Shown in pieces: positions 33,329 to 56,505 of a stretch of DNA of 64,000 nucleotides (its first letter is position 1; each line of letters opens with the position of its first letter). Made by a program: the position numbers and the translations under genes. The stretch is from Gracilaria domingensis (Eukaryota > Rhodophyta > Florideophyceae > Gracilariales > Gracilariaceae), in assembly GCA_022539475.1 (NCBI GenBank), contig VCMS01000195.1, positions 120,820 through 184,819 on the forward strand, in the 5' to 3' direction. Under the pieces are notes generated by a model. The model was not told where the DNA came from and made no database searches. It worked only from the letters and a program-made list of their open reading frames with translations.

Positions 33329-35138
33329 CTAGTTCAGGGAAAGCGAATGGTAGCTTTGCGCAGCTAACGCCAGCATCTGGCCGATATCTGTCATCCCCGG
33401 GAGTCAAGACGCCCATCTGGGTGAGCTGGTTTCGCAACGCAGCAGCCTGCGGATCAACCGCCCCAGTCGGCGTGATGTTCCAACCAGATGGATCGCTACC
33501 CCCGCTTTCTCCCGTCGTTGGGATAACCTGCATGCTGCTCACCGGCGTCGGTTGCACCCCCTCTCCAGGATTCACTGGTTCGCTATCCACCATCGGATCT
33601 TCCCCGCTGTCTCGGGCATAGTAACTGTCGGAAAACATGAGCCCGACAGAGTGATCACTCGGCACAACACGAGGCACTTGCTTTAACGCGCGTGCTTCCG
33701 CGAAGTCGGTCACGGTCCCCTCCCAATGTTTGAAGTATGCGAAGTCTCCAGCCCCTGGATATCATCTACCTGGCGACTTATCGAAGCGCGTACGCTGACC
33801 CAGAGGGATGTTCTCGGGCGGTACTCTGCTCCAATCGATATCATCGATGACGTCGAGCAGGTACAGAAATTCATCAACGTTGGTGGAGGAACCGAGAGCG
33901 GTGTGTAAATCCACTTGTCGGATGGGCTGCCTCAACTTCGGAGGAAGGTACCAAATACAGCACTGGTCGTAGACGTCCCAGAGGGTGAACGCGGCATCGC
34001 GGGCAGCTCATTCGCACATCATCAGGGCCCAGTACGCGGATTTCAGATTCGAAATCATGCGGAAGCCAATGTAGGAAATGCAGGGAGGACACTCCGCGAA
34101 ACAACCGCGTGGAACCTCAAGGTTGCTTTACCACGAAGGAATTGGGACGTAGCCACCCGGTAGTGCGTCATGTCGCAGATGTTCGACTTCGGAATTCGTG
34201 TAAGGTACGAAGAACCCGAACCGGGATCGCCACTTCCTTTCACTTCGGACGCGGTCGCTGAAGGTCCCGTCGCCAGAACGGCGTCGCATGAAGCGGAACT
34301 CTGCTAGCAGAATCGATCGGTTGAAGAGCAACATATCGCGATCCATCCGAGCATTCGGGTCAATCTTCGTCGTATCGAAGGCAGCGAGATTCGCTCCATA
34401 GGTGATTTCACCGTACGTTCGGTATCGGGAGAGATCGAACCCGTACTGGGGCGGTACCACTTCTGGTGAATTGTGAGCACGGTTCATTCGGAAGTACGAA
34501 AGACGCACGATACCTGCGCGAGCTTCGTCCAGCGTCTCGTACTGCCTGCCGGTTCTTTTCCTGTCGAAGAGGTGTGGTGCCACCGCAATGCCAGTTCTCC
34601 ACTCCCAGGAGGTCACCATATCTCGTAGCAAACCGCCTGGCAATGTGCCGTCTTCCGTATAGGAATTGATGATGTCTTCATCCTTCACCGCTTGAGGGTG
34701 GAACCAGGGAGCTCTGGAATACGCCCAACCCCCGTCTAGTCGCCGGTCTCGCACGAGAAGCGATTCGCGTGTGATCCATCCCGACGCGTGTGCCGTAACC
34801 GGCACAGCTCCAGAGGAGTTCGAAGCCGATACCGCGGCAACGTTCATAGCTGAAGCAACCGGCTGCTGACTCCCCTGTGGCAGCGGGGCTGTGGCGAAAC
34901 CGCCGAAGTATCCTGCTCCTGCGGAGGAAGGTCCGGCACCGGAGGGAGCACCAAACTGGCTGGGAACCCCTGAGGAAGGGAAAGCGCTGTCGTTAGAATT
35001 CGGATTCATCGACAAAGCGAGTTCTCGCGTGACTTGGTCGTTCGGAATCTCGAAGTTCGCATCAGGCGTGTGTCCACTTGAGAGTGTATCGCTGTTGAGC
35101 GTTGGTTTTCTTGGTATCGGGATGTCGGAGTCACTCAT
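33329..35138 (-). pseudogene. Accessory antisense gene of chromovirus, copy 1 (~600 aa, unknown function)
   Basis: Starts MSDSDIPIPRK at 35138, about 60 nt from the polypurine tract. One frame can be followed for nearly 600 codons with only a few in-frame stops (first at ~34125) and a probable shift near the 3' end. N-terminal ~130 residues are Ser/Pro/Gly-rich and probably disordered. A conserved region follows: GWITRESLLVRD, SRAPWFHPQAV, LPGGL, YGFDLSRYRTYGEI, YGANLAAFD, EFRFMRR, then ERKWRSRFGFFVPY, and beyond the first stop a W/Y-rich part with ISYIGFR. All these recur in copy 2 at 54657-56505. No known fold is recognised, and no zinc knuckle, protease or membrane segment is evident. It could be nucleic-acid-binding or structural. 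Transcription would start within or near the 3' LTR on the opposite strand to pol. Confidence 0.7.
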
Positions 35139-35199
35139 GCATGAGCTTATATGTTCTCGCAACGAGGTGGTAATGTCGCCGACACGGTATTCCTCGATG

Positions 35200-35210
35200 T
35201 AAGGAGGGGG
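35200..35210 (+). other. Polypurine tract, element copy 1
   Basis: TAAGGAGGGGG directly before TGTGTAGAGCAATCGCG, the LTR start shared with the other copies. Confidence 0.65.
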
Positions 35211-35213
35211 ATG

Positions 35214-35792
35214 TGTAGAGCAATCGCGATTTCGCGTTTGTGACGTGTTCCGTCTCAACACCTTGGCTCTTCGAGATGCCTCTACAGCAAGGCTATGAAT
35301 TTGGGTGGCATTCTGACACCATATGGCATGGTGGCACCCGATGGGTTTGATGGATTGGTAACTGGTTGTGGCAGTGGATCGCGTGTACGCTTGTATGGGT
35401 TGGCTCTGTTACAGAGAAAATTGGATTGGTTTTTAGAATTAGTGGCCGCCAAGGCGGGTCTACACAAGTGCAACAAGTGTGTGGCTCTGGCGTATTTGGC
35501 ACTACTTATCTTAATTATTTAGTTTAATTTGTGGAAACCTACTTCGGTGATGGCGACCTCCTCGTCACCACCACAAAGTAAACTCAACCTTGTCCGCGGC
35601 TCTGACTTGAGCTCCTGCGCGTAGTGCACAACTCTGCGAGGAGGGTCACGTCGTACGGTTTCGCTTTTTTAATCCCCAAGGGATCACTCAGGTACTCTGA
35701 TCTAACACTCCGTTTGTCTTCGGACTGTGTTCCATTTACTTGCAGGTGTCTGCTACTCTGGTGTTGAGATATTGTATCGACTCTGTATAGAG
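35214..35792 (+). repeat. 3' LTR of chromovirus copy 1 (end approximate)
   Basis: Begins TGTAGAGCAA. Shares with the LTR at 53972-54577 an interior block (TAGTTTA...ACCTACTT.GGTGA...CGACCTC.TCGTC...GTAAA.TCAACC) and the word GACTCTGTATAGAG at ~35779-35792, about 580 nt from the start, against about 600 nt in the other copy. The outer end was not located, so the LTR may extend further right. Confidence 0.55.
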
Positions 35793-37975
35793 GTCTGCGG
35801 CGTGGGCTCAATACACATCGTCACCCTCGGCCCTGGTCTGTTGCCGCTTGTCGCACGAACCCGCCCTCGGGTTTGTCCCTTTTCCTTTTCTCTCCTTTCC
35901 AACTTTTCCCATCCTTTTTCCTATCTTTTACCCCTTTTTCGAGGCACCCCGTCGACCTTGGTTCCTTCTCTTCCGCCTTCGATCAGAGATATCAGACTCT
36001 CGAACGCTTGCTTACAAATCCTTTCTTGGCGATTCCCGCCCTCACCTCCGTGGTATTTCCGAAGTACGGGCGGTTTTACTCCCGCGTTATCCGTATACGG
36101 AGGCCTCTTCTGCTGAGTCTACCTCCCAATAGAGCAAGGACTGGAGCACTTTGAGTGTCATTTCTCCCAACTGGGATTTGCAGTACACAACCCATGCCCG
36201 GTAGGTGTGAAATCATGACCTCCAACATTTCTAACATTATATGTGCTTGCACTATTGCGGAAAGCCAGATCAACTACGTAGTCAACGCCTCACATTCTGA
36301 TTTGAAGTGTTATAGATACGTCGAACTGAGCAAACCTTGAACAGAGGCTACTGACTGCGATTTCTGCACCACGCAAAACGAAGGTCCAGCGCGCTGCGTT
36401 TATTTTGCGCCTATCCGTTGAAATAACACAAATATTAAAAGAACTCTGTTTCTTGGCTGCGTTCAAGCGTTAGAGCGCATGCGCTGACAACATGAGAACG
36501 CTCATATCAGGTCCAAAACGCTCGATGCAATCCGAGCGATATATATATGCGTGGAGATCAGTCAAAGGCGGAATTGTCAGCGCCTGCGAAGACGATCTTC
36601 GCCTCTGCTCTCCACCGTCAGGTCCGCTCACGCGCTGCCTGGAAGCCTTCTGCCAGCGCATTTCTCCCTTATTCATTTGTCTTTGCGTTGCAATAGTGAT
36701 AATTGTAGTTACAAGGATCGAGGATATCGAGATCGCCTTCGTGCAAATGCCAAATCGAGAACGATTTGGCAACGGCGTTGCAAGGCGGCTTGCTCGATCT
36801 TCCCCGACAAGGCCCCCTTTTTATCTGTTTACCCTCGAACGGGCTATGGTACTCGCGTTTCATGCATCTCGCTTCAGATCTTACAGACATTTATTGAGAT
36901 ACTTAGAATCATCTATTTCTCTTGCGAGTTGGGAAATCACTAGAGATGATGGTATGACACTTGAACGTGTCCGCAGTAATATGATAATGGCTTAATTAAG
37001 CGCGGAGATCTATATTTGTCAGGATAACCTGCAGTTGCAAGTAAACAGGGAATATGGACTATTTTTGACACAGATTTTACAGCGCTGAACAGGGTTTATA
37101 CCAATCACTCCGGATGTTGATGGAACCAGCTACTATTGCGATCGCTGGGACAGGTTGCCATGAGGAAGGCTAAGATGGTGCCGGGATTTTGTTCTCTCAT
37201 CGTTCAAATGAAATTCAAGAGAGCTAGAAAGGGTTTATATGTTCGGATTGGGCGTCCTGATTTTGTTGTAAGTGGCGATGAATCTAGTAGCCAATTCAGT
37301 CGTGGTGGCGGCGATGGAGTCACATCAATGAACGTGGTTGGGGAAGGGGATCCAATAGATGAGCTGTGTAACATGTTTCGCCCAATGCTACACATTTAAC
37401 AAGGTGTTTGTATACGTTCTGGCTCTATGGTCGAAAACGTTGGTCTTGCGTAGGTCGGGTATGCTCGAACGAGTTCACAGGGATCGAATAGCATAGATAT
37501 GTCTTAAGATGAATCGCACTGCTGAAAAACACTTGGGAGCTCTGAGTGAGTAAATAAGATATGGATGGCAGGGGAAGAGAGACACCGTAGCGATCTTCTG
37601 TGAATTTTTGAAGGCTTCTGATTGCGCGTAACACCATAGACTGATGGCTTAATATCTCTTCTGAAATGCTCTGTGCAGTTGTGAAGATTAATACGTCGCT
37701 TGTCATGGGTCGGAGGTGGACTTGCAGATTAAATACTTCCGATACGAGCCCGTTCGTCGTTCCCCGAAGATTACCACAAAGGGGAATGCTTCGCCAGCAT
37801 TAGAGATATCGTACGTAATTGACCTCCCACACCACGTCAGCGCGCTCTATCCTACACGAAAATTAGGATATTGTACGCATAAACATAAAGAGAGAGAGAG
37901 ATGTCCCCATTGAAGAATTATAAATGAAGTTGTTGGAAGTTTCTGGTGAACATTTCATTTATTCAGACATGATGC
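35793..37975. other. No gene seen
   Basis: 35870-35990 is strongly pyrimidine-rich, possibly still LTR or leader of the element. A frame at 37136-37399 (plus) has mixed composition and no recognised domain. No RNA genes identified. Confidence 0.35.
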
Positions 37976-37979
37976 CTAG

Positions 37980-38904
37980 AAGTTTACAAGAGCCGCCGTG
38001 TCACTCCTGAAGTGTAGGGCTATCTCTCTCATGTACGTATGTTGCAATCGTTCTGGGGATGTGTTCATTTGGAACGCAATCTTCTTGAGCAAAGCTGCTT
38101 CATTTACATTCTCGAAAACTTGGCTTACATGATACTTTTTGTGTATCATGGAGGCGTAACTTTGCCAAAAATCGATCTTCGTCACACAGCAAAGGTTTTC
38201 ATTGTGCGAACTCATAAATTTCTGGGGTGCTGGTGTAATTTGTGAAGGTGTCAGCAGTTTTGCGGTGCTTGCGTGAATCAAGAGTGGCTTCACTGGCCTA
38301 CACTCAGCACTACCGAACCTCTTCATTATCGCTGGACGAAAAATTTCGATGTGAAACCTCCACTATGGTATCACTGTCGCAGGTAAAATCAACAGGACGA
38401 CTGCCTGTTTCGTCTGTTTGTGTTAGGACGGCGCCTATGCCCGTCCCTGAAGCATCACATGTGCCAAATTGGTAAGGCATTAGCTTTTGATGCTATCATG
38501 TAAAGGTTCGAGTCCTTGGTCAAAAACACATTGCATTCAAACAAAACCAAAGTCCAAACACAACAGTAAGTAGTTAGCATTACTTTCAGCACCAGCGTTC
38601 TCATCAGCGAGAAGTGCTATCAAATATAGGGAACTTTCATAGAATCAAAACATTATGTACTTAGGACATTTCCGATGTGAGTAGATATAGAGGTTGTGGG
38701 TTGGCCTGAAGTTTTGTTAAAGATTTTGCAAAGATAGAAGTACTGCTCGTACTCAAATTTGCTCGGTAGTTGAAGCTGACTCCATACTTGCGGTCTTTGA
38801 CCTCCGGAAGCGAGCCCAAGCAGAGCAATAATGTTCACAGACCAATTCGCTTCATATGAGCATACTACCGACGCAGAATCGCTCATGGTCTCTCCTTTGG
38901 CCAA
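37980..38904 (-). pseudogene. Recombinase-like remnant (box-I and C-terminal parts) with an insertion
   Basis: The minus-strand frame at 38653-38904 carries a box-I-like segment, SVNIIALLGLASGGQRPQVW followed by QLPSKFEYEQYF. The frame at 37976-38326 carries the C-terminal part: KIDFWQSYASMIHKKY, then LLKKIAFQMNTSPERLQHTY. The latter aligns with LRSSFATAMVDKF and LSRRMNTSIEMLKDLY of the 41044-42947 protein. The box-I arginine and final tyrosine are present, but the box-II arginine is tryptophan. Between the two parts lies unrelated sequence, including a Ty3/gypsy RNase H fragment (38335-38490). A decayed copy interrupted by insertion. Confidence 0.5.
38335..38490 (-). pseudogene. Ty3/gypsy RNase H fragment
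   Basis: The minus strand reads QFGTCDASGTGIGAVLTQ, then RPVDFTC and SSSDNEEV. This is the start of the RNase H domain that follows reverse transcriptase in Ty3/gypsy pol (family pattern: TDAS..GIGAVL.Q...PVAF...). Only about 50 codons are left; no flanking pol sequence is visible. Confidence 0.7.
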
Positions 38905-41043
38905 TCGCAGTTGTCAGGCAGCCCACATTTTCTTGATCTGTCTGAGAAGACCTCACGCCGCTGACTGCAGCCATCTTAAAATGTCATCATGAAAAGTTGG
39001 GAACGAGAGCGCGCACTTTCCTTGATCGCGTCTTACGGTTCCCTTCGAGCCTACTGCTTTCCCACCGTCAAAGCAATTTCTCGCCGACTTCCCTTGAGAA
39101 ATGCCGCGTTCAAATAAACTGCAATGCACCAACATGCCGGAGAAAGAGAATACAGGTATGAAGTTAGAGTGGCCATCTGTTTCTCCAAAGGAAAATTTTG
39201 AAGTTAGTATTGATGGGCACGATGAGATTAAAGTTATGCTCGAACTGTATTTGTGTGAATATCGAGATTGTTCACTGGAAATTCAATATCAAACAATTTA
39301 CTCCAACTCGTATTGCTTCTTATTATTTCAATATTTACCTTGAGATTTTCCGAGTTGATATTATTCATAGATGCATGTCAACCTTTCAGCGGCTTTCCTT
39401 CATTTTTAGATCGTACTAGGAATATTATTTTGCACGTCATAATTTTTCTTCATTGAACGTCTTGTACGCTCTTCTCAACAATAATGAACTATGTCCAACG
39501 AGAACTACCTCCTCAATATCTATATTAATATCTCTTGTTTATCATGTAAAGAACTATCTCCATCACTTCAATATTTCGATTTCCTTTTAAATTTTTTGCA
39601 ACTTTTCTGCGAATTATATTAAATTGCTTTCTGTCTGTTTCTCTTCCGTATTCATGTGCTGTAATTATTAACCTATAGTTAGGGCAATGCGTTCTGTCCT
39701 TTTCATTCATTGTTTATCTGTCGCATAACGCGGAGCTAGCGAATTTGGGCACCTTGCCAGTCTAGCCAGTGACCTACGGCGTAGAAACGAAAACACATAT
39801 ATTATAGATTATAGAACCCCTAATCCCCTTCGCGCGGTCTGAACGGCCGCGAGAGCTCGAAGCGAGCCAGCTCTGCTGGGGCGCGAAGAGCGCCTGAGTG
39901 TTCAGCGGCCTCGTGCTGGGCTCGCACGTGGCCAAAGTGTGCTTAGGTGCACAACACCCCCCTCCTTTGTGATGACGGGGGTAAGTTCCGGAGCAGCAAC
40001 AACTCCAGAAAAGCAGTAAACTTATCTGAGTTCAGGCTCCAAGATTGCATGGCTGGCCGGTTGATTGCCCCTGGAACCCGGTTTGGTCTCGCAAAAAGCT
40101 AGATTCGTTAGTTATACATGCGCTGTGTGCTTAGTTGCAGAACGGCAGCACGCGGAACAAGCGCAATCAGTATGAGATCGCCGCCGTTAAGATTGGAAAA
40201 AGTAGAATCCTTTTCAGCAGTTCAAGGGGCCTTGGCCGCCGGCTAGTGGGCTTCGCAAACTTCTATTAGGCTGACCGCGTTTGTCCGTCTACCCATAGAT
40301 AGTTGTGGGCGGGAGCGGCAGCCGTCCCCAAGCCCGTCTGTCCATAGACGGTTCTAGGACAGTGCCGGGCAAGGCCAGAAAAGATGAGTCAACTAGTTAC
40401 GCTGCGTCCTGCTGTTCGTAGGCACTTTAGCGGGCACGGAGAAGCACACCGTGAGCGGCATCAGAGACCAGATGATCACCTGGCGTCCATCGAAGCTCGT
40501 GTTCTATGGAATAATGCCCGCTACATGCCGAAAAAACGATCGATATGCGGGAGAGGTAAATTGCAAATCGAAAATCTTGGCTTACTGGAATTGTGAGGAA
40601 AAGGTTACGAAGAGCGGCAAAAGAACAAAAGGTGCGCTATAAACCTCATCCATATCTTGAAGATCATGAAACCGCTTGGCACATTGCTGTAATCGTGAAC
40701 ATAGTGCGGGTGGATAATTGTGCGCGCCTGCGGTTTAGACTAAAGCACGCTAGCGGTGAGAGCAGACTTATTCGGCTTGAGAAGTTGTCTCGATAGGGAG
40801 GCCCCGCCATCGCGAAGTGGTGCAAGTCTTGTCCTGGGCGCGTGCTTGGCTCCCATGTAGGCCGCTACATGACTCAAGAATCTCGTCCTCTTCTAAAACC
40901 TTTTGACAAGGAAAGCTGCGGTCTCCAAGAGCTTCTGTACCGCACGTTCTTTAATAAAAGTTACCTTCGTTCTTCGTTTGTTCATGTGTTCATGCAAATC
41001 GGTTTTATTCTGTCTGCAGAACGCTCACAAGTATACGTGGTGA
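38905..41043. other. No supported gene
   Basis: 38953-39135 (minus) may be further recombinase remnant. 39300-39720 is AT-rich and featureless. 39820-39960 is GC-rich with complementary words (GCGGCC/GGCCGC, GAGCTC). Short frames around 40384-40796 look partly coding but cannot be joined or recognised. Confidence 0.35.
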
Positions 41044-42947
41044 ATGATGGACATCATCAACTTGGTGTCTGAAGATGACGACGACAATCGTTTTCAGAGT
41101 GATGCTGAACAAACTTCTGAGACTCCAAAGAACAACCGTGGTACACAAGAGTCGCAAAAACGCAGAACTACTGGGGGAATTTCGTCAACCCAAAGCGTGC
41201 GCGAGGATCAGGAAGATGAAATAATTCCCGCTTTCGCACTACCTACTTATAACAAGAAGCGCGTTTGTCGAGCACGAGACTTGCCCGATCTGTTTACAGC
41301 TTCCGATACGGATTCTGAGAGAGTTTTTCGCAAAAAGCGTCGCCGTTTAGTGCGTCGCAATTTATTGCCAGAACTTTCCGAACTGAAGGAAACCGACGAG
41401 TCTCTCCCCACCATTTCGCAAGATGGAGAAACTAATTCAGTTAATCTGGACCGCGTTCTGGCTGCTCAAGAAGCAAGACTTTCAGACTCTTTCAAAAAGG
41501 CAATTCCCAACATATGTCGTCCTCGTAGGGCTTCCGTCAGCCGTTCTTCGAATATTGACTCTTTGGAAGACGGTAAGAAGCTTTGGGAGCTGATGGTCAG
41601 GGTCAAAGAGCAGCTGTTTTCAGATTACTTTACCAGCGAGGAAGCCCGTCTCGTTTTACCAAGCTGTCAGTCGGAACAAAATGGTGACAGAAATCATTAC
41701 GATGGACTAGATGTCGATGAAAGGAACTGCATTGATATCAAGAAAGTTTATGAAGATAAGTATCTCGTTAAGCGTGCCATTGCCGGTGCGAAAACGACGC
41801 AGCACAGTTTGGTTAAGACTATTGCCGGTCAAGTAATGTGGGCAATAGTAGCCAAGGCGATGGAAAAGAACGATGGATGGAAAGCAGGAAGTTTGTTCCG
41901 GCTTTTGCAGAACTACAAGCTCATAAAGTGTCTTGTACGACACTTTTCCATAATCTATGCAAACAACACGACTGCATCAAAATGTGCCTCTCTTCGCGTT
42001 TCAATCGAGTATGCACTTCTAGACGCTAGTAATCAAGAGAATGAGAAGGAAATGAAGAAACTGATTCAATTCCTGAATCAGTTTAAGGCCAGTTCACGCA
42101 CGGCAGCGCGAAAGGAAAAGTACGAGCAGCGATTAATTGATTTTCATGAAGACCCTCGCTGTGTGGTTAAGGATGCCGAAGTGAAAAAAGGATACCGAAC
42201 TGCAATTCATGTGCTACATGACGTAAGGACGTTCCATGGCAAGTGCCAGGAGAACATGGAGATCTTTCGCAAACTGTTGTACAATGGAAAGCGAAACATG
42301 GCGCAAAAGTGGAGTATAAACCTACTTGCTGCGATTATGCTTGAAGGAGGTGATCAGCGTCCGGAGGCGTACGCCAATCTACGGGTCCCTACGGAGTTGG
42401 AACTGAGTCGTGTAACTAATTCCGAGTTTGGAAGCTATCTTGCTTTGCGCCCATGGTTTGAGAAGCGTCCCAGGGACTTTCTATTTCCGATCGTGATGTT
42501 ACCAGCTAAGATGAAACCGATTATCAAATTGCATGTTGAAGTGGTGACACCGATCATTCTAGCGCAGGCGGAAACTGTTGAAGAAGACGTGGATGCGGAA
42601 GACACGATTTATTATTGCACACTCAGGATGGCAATTATCTAACATCTCGTTTGATTACTAGGTCATTCCGCGCATTCATGTGCAATCAAGACAGGAAGTT
42701 CAGTACGATCAGTTCAACGAATTTAAGAAGCAGCTTTGCTACTGCAATGGTGGATAAGTTCAAGAAGAAGAAGTTCGCCGAAGATTTGACTCAAGATGAG
42801 TTTTTGAGGCATCTTTCTCGTCGCATGAACACTTCTATTGAAATGCTGAAGGATTTGTACGTGATGAAATTACGCGAGGACTATGAGGAGGGGGTCAAAA
42901 TAGCGATGAAGTACTTGTCGTTGACGGTTGGTGAAGGTGATGAGTAG
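41044..42947 (+). CDS. Tyrosine-recombinase-like protein, best-preserved member, frame change near 42.6 kb
   Basis: The first frame (41044-42642, 532 codons) has an acidic/basic N-terminus (EDDDDN; FRKKRRRLVRRN), a helical middle, and a box-I-like segment, INLLAAIMLEGGDQRPEAYANL, with the candidate catalytic Arg at codon ~439 (42358-42360). The second frame (open to 42947) overlaps it and is displaced by -1. It contains LLLHTQDG, then LRSSFATAM (Arg at 42726-42728), then LSRRMNTSIEMLKDLYV (Tyr at 42858-42860). The order and spacing resemble tyrosine recombinases: Arg box I, LRH.FAT box II, a conserved turn, and a terminal nucleophilic Tyr. The usual box-II His and the LGH.. His are not evident. 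The frame change could be an indel, an unseen intron or programmed -1 frameshifting. Paralogues lie at 2757, 10846 and 37980. Confidence 0.6.
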
Positions 42948-43342
42948 TGTAGAATGGTTTAATGATATTTGTTTGATGTAGTACTGCTTGCAATGAGTAA
43001 TAAAAGTCCTTGAGTAAGGGTTGCAGCTTCCCCAAAGACGGCAAAACTGCGGAAGAGGATGGACGAACGATAAACATTCCCGCAATGGCAATCAGACCGG
43101 ACAGGTATGATATCAATGCCTTCTCGCTCTCCTTCTACTTTTCAAGTTTAGAAAAGTGCGGTCGCACAGCTCTTTGTATTTCTGGCTCGCCGGTCGGGCT
43201 CTTGTTAGTTGTCCCTCTGTGCAAAACGGCATTTTCATCGAGAGGCTTCATCAAAAGTCGCATGTCCTTCATTTGTGTGTGCGGGGGAATCGAGAGAATG
43301 GAGGGTGTGACAGGTGGACCATATAACTGCAAAATGTGTGCT
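42948..43342. other. Intergenic
   Basis: Separates the mobile region from the host gene island. AATAAAAG near 42998 could serve as a polyadenylation signal for the upstream gene. No gene supported. Confidence 0.4.
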
Positions 43343-43888: not shown

Positions 43889-44088
43889 TGTGCGGAAGGC
43901 ACAAAGCAGAGGTAGCAGTCGCAGCAGCAGCAGCGGTTGCAGCAGCAGCGACGGCATAAGTGGTTCACAGGTGGGCGCGACGCGGCAAAAGGCGTAGAAA
44001 AAAGGTGAAGCGTGTGCGCGGCGGCGGCGCAGTAAAGGCGCCTCGACCAATAAAGGCGTGCGAGTGCGGCGGCGTGCGCGCCGCGCAC

Positions 44089-44655: not shown

Positions 44656-44712
44656 GGCGCCTTGCGCCACGCCGCCGCGGCCGACAGCTGTAGCGCGGTG
44701 TCCGTCTGTCTT

Positions 44713-44738
44713 TTTGGCGCGCTTGCGAGCGCGGGAAA
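44713..44738. promoter_or_regulatory. Bidirectional promoter with two E2F-like sites
   Basis: The 151-bp space between divergent starts at 44655 and 44807 holds TTTGGCGC (44713-44720) and GCGGGAAA (44731-44738). Both fit the E2F/DP consensus TTTSSCGC, one on each strand. E2F sites in plants and algae mark genes expressed at the G1/S transition; use here is inferred. Confidence 0.4.
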
Positions 44739-45749: not shown

Positions 45750-46625
45750 TGGCTGACACCACGTGAAGGCACAAACTATTTCGGCTCGCACGCTGCGTGC
45801 ACAAAGACGTCTTAGTGCGCGAAATCAAATGTCGTCCTTATTCCACAAATCTACCAAATCTGACCGCCAGAAAAGGATGGAGAGGCGCGCTCGTAGCGCG
45901 CTACAACCAAAGTGAACGCCCTTCATGGCCCCAAGTTATTTTTTTCTTTGTATGTTCGGCTCGAGCTCGCATGCGAGTGCCGTGTGTGCTCCAACGCATT
46001 CTTTTGTGAGCCATCGCCAAATATTATGAAGATGCCGCCCTGCCTGTGATAAAAAGATCAAAATTGATCATCGTATCTGTCTCACGTTACTACTGGTCTT
46101 TACGTTGCTCAATCGCTATGAGAGCCACGCCGAGAAGACTCACTCGGAGTGTAGATTGATTTATTACCCACAGTTGAATCCCGCGCAACTTAAAGCTGGC
46201 CTCTATGCACCATTGTGTTAATCTACTAAACGTTGTCACGACGGTGAGGTCAATGTTTACTTGTAGGCCAGACACAATGAAACGAAGGAGTTGTGGTGGC
46301 AATAAACTGATAATCTGCCGCTCGGTTCTCTGCGCGAAGCAGGTAAGGCACATCCCGACTGCCATCACTTCTTGTCCAATCTTGAACATTGTGCCTGAAA
46401 CGAGTGCAGAAGCGCCAGAAGGTTCTCTTTGTCAACTTCGAATGCAGCACAGAAAAAGAAGTGAATTCCTCAATATATTTCTGAAGAGCAAGTTTGAAGT
46501 AGGGTATAATCACCATGTAGATATATCCATCCGCGATGTAGTTAGTACTCGTCACGTACATTCGTCTTTGCTTTTTTGTTTGCACGACCTGTTCCATCGT
46601 TTCCTGTCAATTCGCCCTCGTCACC
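45750..46625. other. Intergenic, no gene seen
   Basis: Downstream flank of the 3-exon gene and upstream flank of the coiled-coil ORF. A pyrimidine-rich stretch directly before 46626 (GTTTCCTGTCAATTCGCCCT) looks like a promoter/leader. No RNA gene seen. Confidence 0.4.
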
Positions 46626-47858
46626 ATGGCTACCGCCAGGTATTTCTCCACCAAGTCCATCAAGCTTCTTGCGGACGACATCAATTCAAATTTCGCAGAG
46701 ACGACCGTTGACAATTTTCTCAACACCCTCGCGAAGATCGACTCTCAAATTCATGAAGAATTCAGTGTCTTGAAGAACGATCTTTCCGTCGCTCATATTC
46801 AACTAGAGCAGGCGAATACTGGATGCAAAGCTTTGCAGATTGATAATGAAGCGTAGACCAAAGAAATCGCAAAATTCTCAGCAAAACGTGCGACTATCAC
46901 GGCTACCAACGCCGTGCCAGCGCCTTCTACCCCACTACCCGCTTCTACTGCCGCTGTCAATTGTACTTGCTCCACTGTCAATGGTGAACATCAACCGTCT
47001 TGTGCATTCATGCACGCTATCTTGGCAACTTCTAACCCGCAACGATTGGTACAACTGTTGTTGGCGAGGGAGAGGGCTTATCGTAATCCGCATGCACTCG
47101 TTCAACGTCTCAAGCTAGACAACACCGAATTGCGAAGCTCCTACGACAATCTATGGTCACGCCATCCAAACCTTCATCAGAAGGACAGCCAAGGCGATAA
47201 CAACATTGAACACTTGTCAGTATGCCTTCAAAACGCCGGTCGCCAAGCTTTTGATGTGGCGACACATGTTGAAAAACGGCTTCAAATCACAGCACAGAAC
47301 ATCAACAACTTCCGTCAATCTGTCAAACTCCGTTCGAAAGTCTCTCAGGATGCCAAGCAACCTATCATAGATGAATACGAACAAGACTCTGACAATGAAA
47401 CGGAACTTAACGTCACGGCGTGTGCAACGGCTGCAGATGAACTCATCGTAACTCCGGCGGCACAGAAAGTAGCCTATGACCGTCTGAAGAGTACCGTCAT
47501 GGAATTGACCAAGCATTTGGAACAAGGAGTTGAAAAGAGACAGCAGGAAACAGACGAGGTCAATAAGAAGCTCGATGACGCTGAAAACAAACTGAAGACG
47601 GCTCAGAATGATATCAAGCGCAAGGACTGTGAAGTCAGTGATTTGAAGAAGCAACTAACAAAGGTACTCGCAGAATATGAGGCCATATCTGTCGCTCACT
47701 CCTACTCGAACGCTGAGTTATCAAGGATCAGGGCCACCAATCGAAAAAAGACAAAGGAGCGTCAATTGCTGGACAGAAACGATCGTCATGATCGACCTCA
47801 CGCACTTATGAACGCGTCAGAGAATCGCAATCATCTTCGCAAGATCCATTTTAGATGA
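46626..47858 (+). pseudogene. Coiled-coil protein with a single in-frame stop
   Basis: Two open stretches (46626-46856 and 46857-47858) are in the same frame, separated only by a TAG at 46854-46856; together they make about 410 codons. The context of the ATG (CACCATGG) is good. The N-terminal part is helical (FAETTVDNFLNTLAKIDSQI). A Pro/Ala/Ser-rich linker follows the stop. The C-terminal half is a long coiled coil (LTKHLEQGVEKRQQETDEV, KLDDAENKLKTAQNDIKRK) with a basic tail. There is one CxC-containing segment, NCTCSTVNGEHQPSC. No family is recognised; a cytoskeletal or tethering protein is possible, as is a gag-like element protein. The stop may be a real nonsense mutation, read-through or a sequencing error. 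Confidence 0.5.
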
Positions 47859-48072
47859 CCTTGAAAAGTTATTTTATGGGTTCTTTTTGTCGTTTTGTTA
47901 ATACCACCAGGCACAAGAAGAGCGCTGCATGGCTTCTCAGCCTCACTTTCTGAGTAAACGTTTCTTTTGTTTGAAAGTTTCTTTTCTCTTGTTTGAACTT
48001 TGTGCAATGGCGATTGGGCCCCCGTTGTTAATATTTTCCTCTCCGTAACTGTGTACATCTTCATCCCTTGTG

Positions 48073-50886
48073 TCAAAAGTACAATACATCGGATCGACTC
48101 CGTTTCTTAGTGCTGCCCTCAGCGACAATCCGTGCGCTGTGTGCAATTCTCCACGGCTGATACGGAGAAAGACCCTGCTCAGATTCTGTGATGAAGTAAG
48201 AATCTTGTGGTTGCAGTGCAATTTTCTTTTCTTCCGCCGTCAGATCTTCGTCAGCGAAAATAACTTGATATGAATCTTTCAACCACTCTCGGCACTGATC
48301 GCGAAACGCCACATTGTAGCCATCAGAGTTGCTTCTGATACTTACGTACAAAACACACGGACCAGTTCCTATTCCACCTCTTGCTTCCGGCGCAAGCACA
48401 GCCACTGCAACATAGTCTCCTCGAGAAGAATCAGCTACCAACAAACAAACCTGAGAATACGTCCGCATGCGTCCGATTTGCCTAAGGCATTTGCTTCTCC
48501 TTTCTGAAGTGTTAACGAATCCGTCCACAGATTGATCCTTATCGATATGAACTTGAAAGGAGATCGAAAACCTCATCAGATCCCATCTCCTCCGAAACAC
48601 ATCGACACCTGCATTGTTTGCTGGCCTTCTCAGTAAACGAACATCTGAACTTGGGACGTAGTATGGCACGCATGGCTGTTCCGCAGCATGAGCCATGCCC
48701 GCTTCCGCTGGCCCTTCGTGACTTGTAAGTATCGAGATAAACACTTCTCCTGCAAATCCCTGATCCTTTCTTACCGCCAGGATCAGACGTTGCGTCACAG
48801 ACGCCCCCGGATCTAGAGTACCAAGCGTGTAGACCGTTGGTGCATCTGGCAGCGAGATCAACGCACCAGCAGCCGAAAAGATAAGGCTGGTAGAACCCGA
48901 CCTCATCTTTGTGCGATTCAGCACTTCAACCCTTATGAGAGCTGTCCCCTTCACTGTGTCCATGGAGTGCGAGGCCAAAACACTGAAGTGGTCTGAAGAG
49001 CCATTTAGCGTTTGATGATCTCCCTCAACTGGAAGACCCTTCCCAATTGTAGAGTTTCTCAGTGACGTCTGGTTGAACGCTTTCATCTTTTTCAGAGCAA
49101 GACTCGAAACATTTAGAACAGACTCTTCGGTGTTAAGAATGGTCGACCCTCTTGAATAGTCATACAATCTTAAAGAAGCAAAAACGCAACTTTCAGTAAT
49201 GTCTTCCATCCAGGCTATGGGATCACTTCGAACTTGGGAAGCATTCGATCTCAAACGCCGTCGCGCAATGTTCGTAAGGTCTCGCACTGAGACAGGCTTC
49301 GGAAAATAGTCGTCCATGTACATCTCCAGGGAAGACACTGTATTTCGAATTGCTTCCAAGACAATGAAGTCAGAGCTTTCAGCTTCGTCCATGATGCCCA
49401 TGTATTTCCGGAGCACAACAATAGCCTTCTCCGCAAGTGGCGGGTTGTGAGCTACAAGAGCAAACAGAGAAGAAAGAGCAGCATAAACATAGTCTGTCGT
49501 GAGCGTAGAACCTTCCGATGCGGCAGTAGCCAGCGCTATACTCCCGAATATGGAATTCTCTATCGCTGTTACAACAGTTCCTACCGTTTGAAGAACGGCT
49601 TTCGTTCTCTTCGATACTGCAGTAACCATGCTGACATATCCGCCTTCAACAACACGCTGAGCCGGAGTTTTGTAACCTTGCTTTGCGTCGCTCCATAGCG
49701 CCCCGGTTTGCAATTCTTTCAGGTGTATCTCATTGTCCTCAGAATGCTCTTGAACATGATTCCAGATAGCTTTCAACATATGCTCGGCGTTAGCTTCGGC
49801 TTTCATGCCGCTCGTAAGCCAGTACCTAGTAACACACACGAGAAGTGACGCTCGAATTCCAATGTCTTGTTGGTCAAGGGTCGCCCTCACCATCAGCTCT
49901 TGCAACCGCTCATACTCCTCCATGCCGACCCCTTGGGACCGCATCAAGAACGATGAATACTGCCCAAGGGCGTCAAACAACTTGAGATAGAGTTCCTTCG
50001 CAAACGCGGAAGCAGACGAATATGGCCAGTTTAGGCAACGAATGGTCTTGGTCATCAACTGCGATAGCATTACGGCCCATTTATTTGTCAACGTGAGACG
50101 CAGAGCAGGATCCGGACACTTGCAAATCTTCCGAGAAGCATCAAGCAGACTCTGTGACATGCAACACATGAGCTCCGACGCCACAGAGGAATCACCTGAA
50201 TCGACGACCCCACGCCATGAGTCAGATGTTAGCAGAGCTTTCATTGTAACTCCGACTCCCGCATCCCTACCGCTCAAGTCATATTCTACAATTGCCGACG
50301 ATATCACGCTGAATGCCTCCAATCTGACGCTTTTGGTAGGACATTTTGCGGCAAAGGGTAACAAACCAACACTTATAGCTGAAATGAACTTGCTGTTCAC
50401 ATAATCGTTCTTACTCAACGTAGCAAGAGCGTTTGATCCATTACGCATCAAACCGGCCATCACAACGAGCGGAAGCTTGGCATCATTTTCAATCAAGATA
50501 CGGGTGATTCGACGTGTGGCCTTGATTCCCCATGAAGCTACTACTTCTGTTGTTGGGTTCTCCTTGGCATAGCTGCATATGACCAGAAGTGACGTACATG
50601 CACAGGAAGAAAGTTCTGCACTAACATCGTCACAAAGGGGAACAATGACATGATCCGCAAAATAGATGCCTCATTTAGAAGCCACCTGATGTGACTGAGC
50701 AACGCTTTGATTTTCATCATTTGACAGAGATGTTTTCGGGTCCAATACATAACTGACGAGACGAGACAGCCCTCTCAATACTTCTTTCGCGAGACGAACG
50801 TTAGCAGTAGCGCAATCATCCGCCGACTTTTTTAAATGGTTCGTAAGAAAGGCGACAAATCGATCTCCAATCTTCTCACGCTAGGA
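48073..50886 (-). CDS. TPLATE/adaptin-like large subunit, 5' end lost in gap
   Basis: About 930 codons visible on the minus strand, running out of the N gap and ending at 48073. The N-terminal two-thirds is alpha-solenoid (ARM/HEAT-like helical pairs, e.g. DYVYAALSSLFALVAHNPPL). The C-terminal third is beta-rich, with an appendage-like sandwich (KGTALIRVEVLNRTKMRSGS, LGTLDPGASVTQRLILAVRK) followed by a platform-like domain. This order matches large adaptor subunits. The length and the extended C-terminus fit TPLATE of the plasma-membrane TSET/TPLATE endocytic complex better than AP or COPI beta subunits, but the family choice is from memory of architecture. One in-frame TGA (50671-50673) lies in otherwise continuous coding sequence upstream of 50496, so the gene may be damaged or the base miscalled. 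The C-terminus is KKRSRSDVLYF. Confidence 0.5.
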
Positions 50887-51385
50887 NNNNNNNNNNNNNN
50901 NNNNNNNNNNNNNNNNNNNNNNNNNNNNNNNNNNNNNNNNNNNNNNNNNNNNNNNNNNNNNNNNNNNNNNNNNNNNNNNNNNNNNNNNNNNNNNNNNNNN
51001 NNNNNNNNNNNNNNNNNNNNNNNNNNNNNNNNNNNNNNNNNNNNNNNNNNNNNNNNNNNNNNNNNNNNNNNNNNNNNNNNNNNNNNNNNNNNNNNNNNNN
51101 NNNNNNNNNNNNNNNNNNNNNNNNNNNNNNNNNNNNNNNNNNNNNNNNNNNNNNNNNNNNNNNNNNNNNNNNNNNNNNNNNNNNNNNNNNNNNNNNNNNN
51201 NNNNNNNNNNNNNNNNNNNNNNNNNNNNNNNNNNNNNNNNNNNNNNNNNNNNNNNNNNNNNNNNNNNNNNNNNNNNNNNNNNNNNNNNNNNNNNNNNNNN
51301 NNNNNNNNNNNNNNNNNNNNNNNNNNNNNNNNNNNNNNNNNNNNNNNNNNNNNNNNNNNNNNNNNNNNNNNNNNNNNNNNNNNNN
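50887..51385. other. Assembly gap (499 N)
   Basis: Run of N. It removes the 5' end of the TPLATE-like gene. Any frame reported across it is meaningless. Confidence 0.99.
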
Positions 51386-53580
51386 TTTGGAGCTCAGAAA
51401 CAAATTTCGTCCTCCGAAAGCCCGTTGGCGATAGGTGTTCGATACAGTAGAACGCCAATTTCACTCAACTGTTAGAGCATACCACGTAACTGAACAATGC
51501 GCAATGAAGTGGGCATGGCCTTGTGCCAATCCATTTTTTTCTCTTGCTCATATCTTTACACACGTCCGTACATTATAAGACAAATGACAACCAAACGTCT
51601 ACGAGATGCATACAGTTCAAAGTAGGGAGACAATAACAGTTAAATTGCACCGTGTCTGGCCCAGTTTCTTATATGCGTAATCAGAAAGGATCAAAAAATA
51701 ACCATCTTCGACGTGTGCACAGTTGCTCGTAGGGTGAGAATAAGAGTTAAAGTCGACCGGTAGATGTAAGAGATAAATCCTCCCGGGGGGGGGGGGGGAT
51801 TAACACTTTAAAACAACTAAACGCAGAAAATAGCTACACATACTTCCTAAGTTTATAACTTTGCAAGAGCCAGATCACACATGTTGACTAACTCCCTCCA
51901 TATTCCAAAATTTTTGACTTGCATTCCAAACGCATGCAATCTTCTGTACGGGGCAACATATCAACTGGTTGCCCGTTGTTCTTTCTATTTGGTAAAGTCC
52001 TTTTGATCTCCATGCGTAAAATTCCGCGGCAGCCGTTGAAGTACATGTAGAAGTGTGACGGCTGTTGTTGTCGATGAAAAAACATTGCTTTCTTGTAGTG
52101 GAAAAAGCTTGAAAACCATTTTTAGTTCAAGTCATTGCGACATTACCACTGCATGCAGCCAGTTCTTTTAAGCCTCCTTCACTATTTAATATGCGGGTTA
52201 TTATCCAAAACCTACGCACAGGAGCCGACCTGTTTCGGTTCACAAGCATCATACCAGCTCAATCTTAGCTCTTGGACTGCTTCATGCGCACATTCACAAT
52301 CATATCCCCTCCGTATGACGAAGCATCTGCATATTTGTCATCAACTTAACGCGCCATTTTGAGTGTGCGCTCAAGGTCTATGTTGATTTCAAAATAGGTT
52401 TTTAGCCGCAGTTATCACATCTTTGTCCAAATACTGTTCTTTCTGGTGGTGTTTCTCTGAGTGATATTCTCGAAATTGCCCCATCGCAAGGACCATATTA
52501 TCAAGAGAGAAGTGTTTTGAAGCCCTTATTTGCAGTGCTCAAGAGTCAGTATGGAAATTATTTGGCGCGATACAAAAGTACTAGTCAGGACGATCATGAT
52601 GCTTTTCCTTTTTATGCTAATTGTAAACGCCATTTTTTCTAACCAAACAGAACGACGCGTCTAGTGACAAACCCAAAGAGAGCAACACAAACAGCCCAAA
52701 AGTATCAGCCTAAACAGCGCAAGATAATATTGGAGCTCTACAAATAACACAACAGTCGAACAACAAACCTAGAACAAACCTGTCTTTTTCAATGTCTACG
52801 TCAAAACCAACAACCAAATACGGATACGCAGGTCAAGTTTCCAGTTGATCCACTGCACGTCCCAAGTTCGTAGGTAGAAAAAGTACGTATGTACGATGAA
52901 AAGCATCAAAGTACAAACACAAGCCCAACAGAGAGCAACACACCACAACTTCAAAAACAAAGGCAAAAAAGCAAGTCGCCCGTCAAAAGAAAAAAAATAA
53001 GGCGTAAGGTTGATAGCAAAGAAGCAAAAATCGTTTTGAACGAAAGTAAAGATGCTAAAGAAAAACGTTGACGACGAACATAGAGAGAAAGTAGACAATG
53101 CTGGGGGAGTCGTCGTGAGAGCTGAAGTGGTGTGCTGGAGTCGAGTTGGCTGCGAAGCCTCAAACTCCGGGGTTTATATCTATAATTCTTGTAGTTCATA
53201 TTCCCTAAGTTGTACTTTGCTCGCCTTCTAGTCATAAATAACCTAGTGCTACTATCCATTCATAGTAGGTAGTGATGTCAGCGTACGGCTATTCGTTATT
53301 TAGGTTGGTGGTTGGTCGGGTCCTACATGGCTATTTAGATCTTGGGCTAACTCCCCAGGTCATATTCGTGTTCTTTATAATGCCATGATTTTCGTTCTTA
53401 ATGTTGCATTATGTAGATTTGTGGTTGGTTATTGTCCTCGTGGCATCTTGACTTGTTCTCATCTCCTTATATATTTAGACGGTACCGATATTCTCACTTC
53501 TCTTTGTTGCCCTACAGATAGACAACTGTTGTTCGAACTTTCTCACCTTCAGTCTTATAATGTCGGCAAAAAATATTTTA
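51386..53580. other. No gene seen
   Basis: AT-rich, with a run of 14 G at 51785-51798 and several short purine-rich tracts (52900-53080, Lys-coding in one frame). No supported coding or structured RNA gene. The far right may already be flank of the LTR element. Confidence 0.4.
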
Positions 53581-53971
53581 GCAACCGTGACAGATGACCA
53601 TACTGTGGGGCAAACTCGGAAGAGTGAAACCCACCAGACTATTCGAAGGTCCGCTCTCGTGAGAGATGGCAGACCAGTGACAGAGCCCTCTGTACCACCG
53701 TAACTCGGTTGTAAGGCCGAAGTGGCAACTGGCTATACCTACAGAGGTGATAGGCCACGTGGTGAGGAAACGATGAGAAACTCCAGAGATGGGGTGGTAT
53801 CGGCAACGATGAAACACGACCAACGACAGGTGTAGTCCCGAGAGGGAAAGCAACAGAAAACAACAACCAAACAACACCCACACGCGACGGGTAGGGCCTC
53901 CTCGGCACTGTGCCCGGAGCGGGGCGAGATCCTCCAACGGTAATGCACGGGTTTCCGTAAACACGGCAAAA

Positions 53972-54577
53972 CTCTATACAGAGTCGGATCACTTCGTAAT
54001 CTAGTCTTATACCTCCTCGGTACGACCCTCAGGTCCCGACATCAACGACAGATGTTCCTCAAAGGTACCGAGAGGGTAGGACCACCGTAACCAGACGTGG
54101 CTATACTCGCGAGAGTGATAACCCACGTAGGCGGTTGGCGCCAGAGCCTCACTCGTGTAGAGTCCACTCAAGAGAGCGCTACTCGACAAAGAGTTCACTT
54201 AGAAGTGCTCGGGTTGACTTTACAAAGGTGCTCGCGACGACGAGGTCGAGCTCACCTAAGTAGGTCTAAACTAACTATGTACACGTGGTGCACACCCGCA
54301 GGGGTCCGTACACGTGGCTAGCCCAGTGTCAGGCACCTCAGGTGCACTACCTATTGTCCCGTAATATGCACACACACGGTGGTGTAGTACACGCGTCCAC
54401 CTAGCGGTATTGGCCAGCAATGGCAACCCTGATTACAGGTAACTGTGGGAAAGCCATTCCAAAAGTAACCGCCAAAATTGGGTCCAACTCATAACTCTTC
54501 GAGTGCATCCTCGTATCACTCCCCTGAGTATATGAGGCGCATCATCCTGATAACCACGCAAAATGCGTTGCTCTACA
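53972..54577 (-). repeat. 3' LTR of chromovirus copy 2 (outer end approximate)
   Basis: On the minus strand it begins TGTAGAGCAACGC next to the polypurine tract. It contains the interior block shared with 35214-35792 and the word GACTCTGTATAGAG near 53972-53985. It could extend left to about 53590. The matching 5' LTR would lie beyond the right end of the window. Confidence 0.55.
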
Positions 54578-54579
54578 TC

Positions 54580-54592
54580 TCCCCCTCCTTAG
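54580..54592 (-). other. Polypurine tract, element copy 2
   Basis: The minus strand reads CTAAGGAGGGGGA, followed by GATGTAGAGCAACGC at the LTR start. Confidence 0.65.
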
Positions 54593-54656
54593 AGCCGAGA
54601 ACGACTTCGAGGCTGAAGTTTTGTGCGAAACGCAAGTACGTAAATACGTCACCATC

Positions 54657-56505
54657 ATGAGCGGTACCAACTCCTCGGTTTCTATACCTCGCAAGCGCGA
54701 TACACACTCAAGCGAACAGAGTATTCAAGTATCCGAACTCGATCACAGTACATCATCTGTCATTCCGATGAACCCGAATCAGTTTCCTCATCACCCGACG
54801 GGTCAGGCGAGCGCGTCGAACTACCCTCAGCCGGGTTCTGCGACGGCTCCACTGCCTCAGTCTCAACTGATGGTCCCGGTGAACGTTTCGTTATGGAATT
54901 CAGCGCAAGCGATGCCGCTGATGGCGAACCAAGCTGGTTGGATATCGAAGGAATCTCTCGCAGTACGCGATCCACTCCGTGATGGGTTTGCGTTCAGCCG
55001 TGCACCGTGGTTTCATCCGGTAGCTGTTAACGATGACACTCTCCTGGAGTCGTATGCCGAAAACGGCTTCCTACCGGGCGGTCTGCCGTTAGCGGTAGTG
55101 CAATCCCCAGAATGGAAAGTTCGTATAGCGATCGACCCGATGCTCCTCCGGTACGATACCCGCGAGGGTGAGAACTGAACACGCGCGCGCGGAACACGCG
55201 AAGTTGGCGTACAAGAGACTCAGTCGAGTGCACCTCGAGCACCTGGTTCCACCGTCATATGGGTTCGATACTCCGTTCTACCGTACTTTCGGTAAAGTCC
55301 GATATGGAGACAACTTGGCGACGTTCGACCATGCGCGGTACGCCGGCGATGGCCCGTCCACATCGAGGTTGATGTTGTGCTGGAATCGGCCCATACTCCG
55401 AGCGGAGTTCCGTTATCTTCGCAAGAACGCTTCCCAGGGTGGGTTCGTCAACCGCATTCGGTTTGAGCGGAAAGCTCGTTCCCGTCATGGGTATCTGATT
55501 CCGTACCCGAATATCGAGACCGAGAGGTACAGACCGCAGGCCTTTGTTGGACGGTTCCCTCCTCTACCAGATTGGTGGCGTGATGTGGAGGTACCCAAAG
55601 GGTGTTTTGCAGAACTGCCTCCGTGCTTGAGTTACATCGGCTCCCGATTGATCAGCGATCCGCGTTCAGGATGGTGGGGTCTGGTAGCCGGCGAGTGGGC
55701 GGCACGCGTAGCAGCGTTTCTCCTCTGGGAGGCTTACGACAACTACCGTGTTTGGTATATTCCGCCGATGCTTCGCAGCATTATCCGCTCGCTGGATTTG
55801 CACACTCCTTGGGGTCCGAAGAGAACGTGGATGAGATCCATTACATCTTGGATGTTATCGATGGAGTCGATTGGGAAACGGTGCCCCGTTCGCAGCGTGG
55901 GAAAGGTCTCGTCGTCACTACGACCGCTCACCCGGTAGGAGACATCCACCGCAGGAGATTTCGTGTATTACGACCCATGGGAGGGTACGATGACGACTAG
56001 CGCATATGCCGAGTGGGCAGCGAACCAGCCACGGTCGATTCCAGACAGTCACCCGTTGGGTTCATGTTCAGTGACAACTGGGTCGCCCCAGTAGATCTGG
56101 ATGATCCGAACATGGATACGGTGGAGAGGCGGCGGGAGCACTCGTCGAGATGGATCAGGAGTTGGTGAACGACGTACCGGCGGCGAATCAGGTGTTGCAC
56201 GCCAGCGGCGGGGTACCCCAGGCTCCTGTGGGTTGGAATGTTCCGACTCAAGCGAGTGTTCCGGTGGTGGGTCCGGCCCCTGTAGCGGCTACCGTTCCTT
56301 CGGTCCTTCCGGCCCGACAGCTCCGGTCGCTCCGGGAGATTCTCCGGCGAACATCGCGATGTTGCGCGCCAGTCTCCAGAACGCTGGAATTATCGTGCCC
56401 GATCATCTCACCACTATGGCAGGGATACTGGCTTACGCCGTTCCGCACCCTTCGCACGGTCCTCCGGTAGCGGCGGTGCCGGTCCTCATCGGGGGTGTAA
56501 GATGA
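54657..56505 (+). pseudogene. Accessory antisense gene of chromovirus, copy 2 (frameshifted)
   Basis: Starts MSGTNSSVSIPRK, 65 nt inside the LTR boundary and antisense to pol. The first frame holds GWISKESLAVRD, SRAPWFHPVAV and LPGGL. A frame change near 55170 leads into YGFDTPFYRTFG, YGDNLATFD, EFRYLRK and ERKARSRHGYLIPY. Further changes lead to a C-terminus ending in a conserved LRASLQNAGIIVPDHL region that matches LRNQLTQMGVLTPGDD of copy 1. Length about 600 codons, as in copy 1. The N-terminal third is Ser/Pro/Gln-rich. Function unknown. Conservation of the same motifs in two diverged copies suggests the protein was selected before both copies decayed. Confidence 0.7.

What the first reader, a model, noticed from the sequence alone, without database searches (positions are those of the whole stretch)
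33329..56505. Chromoviruses carry an extra ~600-aa antisense gene at the 3' LTR, in three independent insertions
Seen: at 35138 (minus), 54657 (plus) and 15897 (plus) a protein starting MS(G/D)... begins 60-65 nt from a TAAGGAGGGG polypurine tract and LTR start, antisense to pol. Two copies are nearly full length, convergent with a chromodomain 300-350 nt away, and share SRAPWFHP, LPGGL, YGFD, EFR and ERK.RSR motifs despite strong divergence. Known: some plant LTR elements have antisense extra ORFs between pol and the 3' LTR. Inferred: this is a conserved, selected gene of an algal chromovirus lineage, possibly expressed from an antisense LTR promoter; its fold is not recognised.
Basis: partly seen in the sequence, partly recalled or inferred. 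Interest (0 to 1): 0.87.

Follow-up and report, generated by a model that had tools for sequence, protein, structure and literature searches.

The report
Antisense accessory gene of seaweed retrotransposons
Jumping genes (Ty3-type retrotransposons) of what is probably a red alga carry, on the opposite strand just before their end, an extra protein-coding gene of a family I found described nowhere, kept intact by selection and preceded by a promoter-like signal of its own.

Summary
Two of the three places hold. At 33287-35138 (-) and 54657-56463 (+) lie decayed copies of one ~600-aa gene, antisense to a chromodomain-ending Ty3 element, starting 61 and 65 nt from the PPT. At 15897 only a leader remains. 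The host genome (unnamed; nearest named relative Gracilariopsis chorda, a red alga) holds hundreds of copies in at least eight families, many intact (563-681 aa). Of 150 reverse transcriptase hits, 83 have the gene 3.4-4.9 kb downstream on the opposite strand. dN/dS is 0.13-0.15 between F2 and F6, and 0.22-0.25 between F5 subfamilies. A TATA-like box in gene orientation begins 46-51 nt from the PPT in 32 of 35 leaders. A related family lacking the gene also lacks the box, yet has amplified. No Pfam, PDB or Gag relative was found. The layout is known from plants and fungi; the protein family appears new. Best reading: a trans-acting nuclear accessory protein with its own antisense promoter.

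The parts
32703..32975 (+). chromodomain frame at the end of pol, element 1
   Evidence: Pfam Chromo E 5.1e-10
33287..35138 (-). antisense gene, copy 1 (family F1), decayed; 336 codons open from the ATG, then broken by stops
   Evidence: 52.6% aa identity to an intact F2 copy in tblastn
35146..35152 (-). TATA-like box of copy 1
35200..35209 (+). polypurine tract (PPT) of element 1; 3' LTR follows
   Evidence: exact 10-mer
54582..54591 (-). PPT of element 2
   Evidence: exact 10-mer
54641..54646 (+). TATA-like box (TAAATA) of copy 2
54657..56463 (+). antisense gene, copy 2 (family F3), decayed by frameshifts
56852..57100 (-). frameshifted chromodomain, element 2
   Evidence: read by eye; not searched
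58128..58137 (-). copy of the PPT inside pol, element 2 (possible central PPT)
   Evidence: exact 10-mer; same spacing as in L031
61199..61208 (-). second copy of the PPT inside pol, element 2
   Evidence: exact 10-mer; same spacing as in L031
15822..15831 (-). PPT of the third place
   Evidence: exact 10-mer
15880..15899 (+). TATA-like box and ATG of the third place; no gene body follows

Best explanation
A true protein-coding accessory gene of a red algal chromovirus (Ty3/Gypsy) lineage lies between pol and the 3' PPT, on the opposite strand. Shown: homology, fixed position and strand, intact copies, purifying selection. A TATA-like box at a fixed distance from the PPT (shown) probably drives the gene's own antisense transcript, convergent with the genomic RNA (inferred). 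The product has a Pro/Ser-rich, presumably disordered N-terminal tail, a ~370-aa Arg-rich conserved core and an acidic Pro/Ala-rich tail (composition shown, order inferred). Most likely mechanism (inferred): a diffusible nuclear regulator that binds nucleic acid or chromatin and helps the element's expression, anti-silencing or nuclear steps. Acting in trans, it would also explain how a family without the gene stays mobile. My odds: protein-coding gene under selection 0.95; own antisense promoter 0.75; positive nuclear regulator 0.35.
For: 83 of 150 RT hits have the gene 3.4-4.9 kb downstream on the opposite strand, and 86 of the 89 RT-gene pairs within 12 kb are on opposite strands. 56 of 77 F4 rows have no stop inside. 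dN/dS 0.13-0.15 between F2 and F6 and 0.22-0.25 between F5 subfamilies, 27 intact frames. Divergence parallels RT-INT and gag: F2 and F3 are closest in all three. TATA-like box at one place in 32 of 35 leaders, absent from the gene-less family. Arg-rich core, no strongly hydrophobic window in 5 proteins (highest 19-residue mean 1.54). Precedent: Grande gene23 is nuclear and transcribed from its own upstream promoter (as told in PMC7264820).
Against: No RNA, localisation, structure or binding data. A gene-less family (F9) has 17 near-identical complete copies, so the gene is dispensable in cis. The first ATG lies only 13-22 nt after the start of the box in most representatives, close for a TATA-directed start. 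The words of the TATA-like motif were chosen after I had seen the leaders. Within F2 and F3 median dN/dS is 0.58 and 0.46. A nuclear role rests on analogy and composition alone.
Confidence: 0.6

Rival explanations
1. The antisense transcript itself is the functional product (double-stranded RNA or interference with the sense RNA), and the open frame is secondary.
For: The box implies antisense transcription over the element's 3' end. Antisense RNAs of other elements can feed small-RNA pathways (PMC7264820).
Against: Third-position excess and low dN/dS in the antisense frame, many stop-free copies, and 25 invariant residue columns among 18 diverse members.
Confidence: 0.1
2. A self-limiting factor: the protein restrains the element and so protects host and element alike.
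For: A family without the gene has amplified to 17 near-identical complete copies, as expected if loss frees an element.
Against: Gene-bearing families F3, F4 and F5 also have many near-identical intact copies. Selection keeps the gene in most lineages seen.
Confidence: 0.2
3. A structural or envelope-like protein, or a second Gag, for particles or cell-to-cell movement.
For: Its position next to the 3' LTR is where env lies; its rate of change is like that of gag.
Against: Antisense, no clear membrane segment in 5 proteins, no profile similarity to Gag (hhalign probability 0.2%); Gag is encoded separately (zinc knuckle seen by eye).
Confidence: 0.1
4. An ordinary host gene captured once by one element.
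For: Capture by retroelements is well known (general knowledge). The proteins found in other sources come without genomic context.
Against: At least eight diverged families have it at one place with a matching box, with strong selection and divergence parallel to pol and gag. Outside this genome only 13 protein clusters were found, and those are its own relatives (capped at 8000 scored candidates).
Confidence: 0.03

Closest known systems
Antisense aORF-3R of plant Ty3 elements: gene23 of maize Grande, RIRE2 of rice, ORF4 (TRP28 domain) of Silene Retand (PMC7264820, text read as parts 1-2 of 3; PMC11963269, passages)
   Same: A conserved antisense ORF between pol and 3' LTR, present in most copies; for gene23 its own upstream promoter and nuclear location are reported.
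   Different: Those of Retand are in non-chromovirus elements of flowering plants. Pfam, which holds TRP28 (PF04195), gives no match to that family here. The others were not compared by sequence.
brtn of Boty elements in the fungus Botrytis cinerea (title in the reference list of PMC8365987; mentioned in PMC7264820; the paper itself not seen)
   Same: An additional antisense gene in a fungal LTR element.
   Different: Its sequence was not at hand, so relation is untested.
5' aORF of Tekay chromoviruses in sunflower and grasses (PMC11728184, passages)
   Same: An extra gene in chromoviruses, with long disordered parts and Pro-rich composition; one Tekay group carries it and others lack it.
   Different: Located 5' of gag-pol, about 400 aa; not compared by sequence.
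HBZ, the antisense gene of HTLV-1 (told in PMC11963269, passage)
   Same: Antisense accessory gene near the 3' LTR, nuclear regulator.
   Different: A likeness of layout only; no sequence relation was tested.

Membership tests
Chromovirus (Ty3/Gypsy with integrase chromodomain) | RT, RNase H, integrase and a C-terminal chromodomain in one pol | tested here: met
   F4 pol frame: RVT_1, RT_RNaseH, Integrase_H2C2, rve and Chromo (E 8.9e-7) in that order; window chromodomain E 5.1e-10
Chromovirus (Ty3/Gypsy with integrase chromodomain) | flanking LTRs | tested here: met
   974-bp LTR pair, 99.9% identical, in one F3 copy; not tested for the other families
Antisense aORF-3R (a positional class) | conserved ORF between pol and 3' LTR, antisense to gag-pol, in most copies of a family | tested here: met
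   83 of 150 RT hits; the 61 without a listed gene are only partly explained (capped lists, contig ends, F9)
TRP28 / Retand ORF4 | Pfam PF04195 domain | tested here: not met
   no match to PF04195 in Pfam scans of 3 intact proteins and of 23 aligned members at E up to 5
Gag / capsid | profile similarity to the element's own Gag | tested here: not met
   hhalign probability 0.2%, 15 columns; the Gag alignment had only 3 sequences, two of them partial
Env-like protein | membrane-spanning segment, sense orientation | tested here: not met
   antisense; highest 19-residue hydropathy mean 1.54 in 5 proteins; no dedicated membrane predictor was available
brtn of Boty | sequence or fold similarity | not tested
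[quoted passage not shown]
   only a promoter-like box was shown; no RNA or localisation data

The most novel reading that the evidence does not exclude
Red algal chromoviruses evolved a dedicated third gene: a new-fold, lysine-poor nuclear protein with its own antisense promoter. It counters host silencing or protein turnover, works in trans, and therefore supports a cheater family (F9) that has dropped both the gene and its promoter box. Lysine avoidance (0 of 681 residues in F5, 1 of 563 in F4) would reflect escape from ubiquitin-dependent degradation.
Probability: 0.2. Interest if true: 0.85.

Novelty: new variant of a known kind. Interest (0 to 1): 0.62.

Why it matters
Antisense accessory genes of LTR retrotransposons are known from flowering plants and Botrytis, and their function is unknown (PMC7264820). 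Here is a further lineage, in red algae, with a protein that matches no family searched, clear selection, a promoter-like box fixed to the PPT, and a natural control: a gene-less family that also lacks the box. It suggests that such genes arise repeatedly, and it gives a set in which what an antisense retroelement protein does, and whether it can be supplied in trans, can be tested.

Tried and rejected
Pfam at E up to 5 on 23 members gave 5 families, each weakly in 1-3 members; PDB profile searches gave nothing up to E 10. No relatives in phages, plasmids, viral contigs or the bacterial/archaeal genome set. Rejected: the gene as Gag, as env-like, as a once-captured host gene, and the third place as a gene copy. 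Lysine depletion as a sign of selection is weak: against the K/(K+R) of pol it is strong (P 5e-9 for F4, 3e-10 for F5, 2e-5 for F2, 0.004 for F3), but against the base composition of its own frame P is 0.026 for F4, 0.003 for F5, 0.26 for F2 and 0.79 for F3, and some relatives are not lysine-poor (P0008 has 35 in 668). A test of whether pol copies of the PPT track the 3' PPT in two further families found two pol copies in both, but in C78b, a decayed copy, the 3' PPT differs by one base. For the dN/dS set I used 27 frames and dropped L061, L067 and L040 (short or broken). One search failed in my script and was repeated.
Full report
1. What is in the window. On the + strand, element 1 ends with a chromodomain (32703-32975; Pfam E 5.1e-10), then about 310 nt, then on the - strand a gene remnant running down from an ATG at 35138 (336 residues open, then broken by stops), then the PPT at 35200-35209. 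Element 2 is the mirror image: PPT 54582-54591 (-), ATG 54657 (+), a gene remnant to 56463 broken by frameshifts, and a frameshifted chromodomain on the - strand, seen by eye. At 15822-15899 there is a PPT, a TATA-like box and an ATG, but no gene body; a ~170-bp tandem repeat follows. So two of the three claimed copies are real, and both are dead.

2. Genome-wide test. The window lies in an unnamed eukaryotic genome of 77.9 Mb in 680 contigs. Searches with the two window copies gave 121 and 145 matches (120 of 928 and 143 of 1279 candidates were scored, so these are lower bounds); with those they merge to 276 stretches. Two more queries added members of F4 and F5. I name the families F1 (window copy 1), F2, F3 (window copy 2) to F8, and C78b; the names are mine. 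Of 77 F4 rows, each covering at least 541 of 563 residues, 56 have no stop inside. Of 73 F5 rows, 23 cover all 681 residues without a stop. One F3 copy has 974-bp LTRs that are 99.9% identical, a gag-like frame with a zinc knuckle (seen by eye), a pol frame, and the gene in one open frame (pol domains).

3. Position and strand. The best 150 RT hits (of 1776 candidates) were compared with the gene hits. In some searches together, 89 of the 150 have a gene hit within 12 kb, 86 of these on the opposite strand, and 83 have it 3.4-4.9 kb downstream on the opposite strand. The other 61 had none listed; the gene lists are capped, and some of these RTs lie close to contig ends. I fetched three of the 61: two carry part or most of the gene, of a further family (F8), at a contig end; one does not carry it.

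4. A family without the gene. That third one (C14, L075; I call it F9) has an open pol frame of 1899 codons with the same RT score as F4, but its stretch of about 1.75 kb between pol and PPT has no ORF over 122 aa and no profile match to the gene with filters off (best E 5.1). A DNA search with 1301 bases of this stretch found 40 places: 17 complete at 99-100% identity, two partial at 99-100%, and 21 at 70-89%. Nine RTs of the 150 lie 4.03-4.06 kb upstream of such a place on the same strand (counted by hand). So a gene-less lineage exists, has old and young copies, and has amplified recently. The gene is therefore not required in cis: either it is supplied in trans, or it is helpful but dispensable. 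This counts against reading the gene as essential.

5. Selection. From 27 intact frames (Nei-Gojobori): F2 against F6 dN 0.19 and 0.23, dS 1.49 and 1.51 (ratios 0.13 and 0.15); four pairs between F5 subfamilies 0.22-0.25, and the two close F5 pairs 0.26 and 0.50; F4 0.12, 0.17 and, with only 3 changes, 0.68. Within F2 (15 pairs) and F3 (66 pairs) the medians are 0.58 and 0.46. I read these as drift after insertion, which was not tested on a tree. Between most families dS is saturated. Amino-acid identity between families is 36-50%, but 69-73% between F2 and F6. 25 columns are invariant among 18 diverse members, 9 of them Arg. Across F2, F3, F4 and F5, RT-INT identity is 72-82%, the gene's core 45-54%, a piece of gag 34-64%; F2 and F3 are closest in all three. 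This fits one old acquisition and descent with the element, though four families are few.

6. Promoter-like box. Reading away from the LTR, the leader between PPT and ATG carries a TATA-like word (TATAAATA, TATATAAG, TATTTAAG, TAAATA and the like) starting 46-51 nt after the PPT. A pattern search gave 38 distinct 120-nt leaders; all 66 (overlapping) motif counts fall at that place and none elsewhere. Of the 38, three are not gene leaders (F9 and two chance matches); of the other 35, 32 have the motif. For two of the 35 (window 15897 and the minus strand of L026) I confirmed no gene body. Each representative alone has a shuffle probability of 0.001-0.012. Three cautions: the motif words were chosen after I had seen leaders, the leaders are related, and the loci were fetched because they matched the gene. 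F9 has no such word. The box keeps its distance to the PPT rather than to the ATG, which follows 13-22 nt after the start of the box in most representatives but about 100 nt after it in F4, and 7-8 nt in F8. That is close for a TATA-directed start. A conserved inner Met (near codon 38-54) is the alternative: F4 has only that one, and in F6 a stop separates the leader from it. Against this, the first residues (D/E-I-P-V-P-R) are conserved between F2, F6 and F7 with mostly synonymous differences (read). I leave the start open.

7. The protein. Nothing in Pfam, PDB sequences or the element's Gag resembles it. Outside this genome 13 protein clusters were found (8000 candidates scored in each); the only two with a named source are hypothetical proteins of the red alga Gracilariopsis chorda, one of them 67% identical to F4. 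Hence I take the host to be a red alga, perhaps of the Gracilariales; the species was not established. Composition: N and C tails rich in small, polar and Pro residues, a C tail of pI about 4, no 19-residue window above a mean of 1.54 in 5 proteins, 43-51 Arg but only 0-10 Lys in six representatives, against 3.0-4.7% Lys in Gag and Pol. Part of the Lys shortage follows from low A content, and not all relatives share it.

8. How it most likely works. Shown: gene, position, strand, selection, box. Inferred: an antisense transcript from the box; a protein that acts in trans; a nuclear or nucleic-acid function, by analogy with Grande gene23 and Retand (PMC7264820, PMC11963269) and from the Arg-rich core. 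I put about 0.35 on a positive nuclear regulator or anti-silencing factor, 0.2 on a self-limiting factor, 0.1 each on a structural role and on RNA-level function, and the rest on roles I cannot name.

9. Known or new. An antisense ORF between pol and 3' LTR is known from flowering plants and from fungal Boty elements (PMC7264820, parts 1-2 of 3 read; passages of PMC11963269, PMC11728184, PMC8365987, PMC6317226). My paper searches aimed at red algal cases listed none that I could recognise from title or start of abstract; I opened none of those papers, and most subscription papers are not held. So: a protein family and host lineage that I found nowhere described, within a known kind of arrangement, with a promoter-like feature and a gene-less control family.

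10. A side finding. The core of the 3' PPT recurs twice inside pol, in the linker before RT and in the linker between integrase and chromodomain, in F2, F3, F4, F5, F8 and C78b. In F4, where the 3' PPT reads GAGAAGGGGG rather than AAGGAGGGGG, the integrase-chromodomain copy reads the same as the F4 PPT, with an amino-acid swap (EKGEE for KEGEE), while the copy before RT differs by one base. In F5 the copy before RT sits about seven residues away from its place in F3 in one alignment. In C78b, decayed, the 3' PPT differs by one base from its pol copies. This looks like central PPTs kept in step with the 3' PPT at DNA level; it was not tested statistically.

Noticed in passing
window 58128-58137 and 61199-61208 (-), with 54582-54591; L031, L033, L034, L035, L073, L077, L078: The PPT core recurs twice inside pol, in two inter-domain linkers, in six families; in F4 the integrase-chromodomain copy has changed as the 3' PPT has. 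Possible central PPTs in a Ty3 lineage. A search for papers with 'central polypurine tract', 'retrotransposon' and 'gypsy' listed two, judged by listing only.
   Followed up: partly
L075 (C14) and the 40 places: A related family without the antisense gene: about 1.75 kb without a long ORF in its place, no TATA-like box, 17 complete copies at 99-100% identity.
   Followed up: partly
antisense gene of F4, F5 and G. chorda P0011: Extreme lysine shortage: 1 Lys of 563, 0 of 681 and 1 of 617 residues, with 51-56 Arg each; partly explained by base composition.
   Followed up: partly
window 15994-17730, 22272-24707 and parts of 27343-31647: A ~170-bp tandem repeat in several arrays, parts in inverted orientation; it cuts into the third place and into element 1 upstream of its chromodomain.
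   Followed up: no
window 1-452 / 13921-14372 and 2176-3286 / 12281-13392: A direct repeat pair of 99.8% identity and, inside it, an inverted pair of 98.5%; possibly the ends and inner repeats of another large element.
   Followed up: no
G000 C144: RT at 60656, 72246, 83836: Three RT hits with equal scores spaced exactly 11,590 bases apart, and two gene hits 11,597 apart: a possible tandem array of one element.
   Followed up: no
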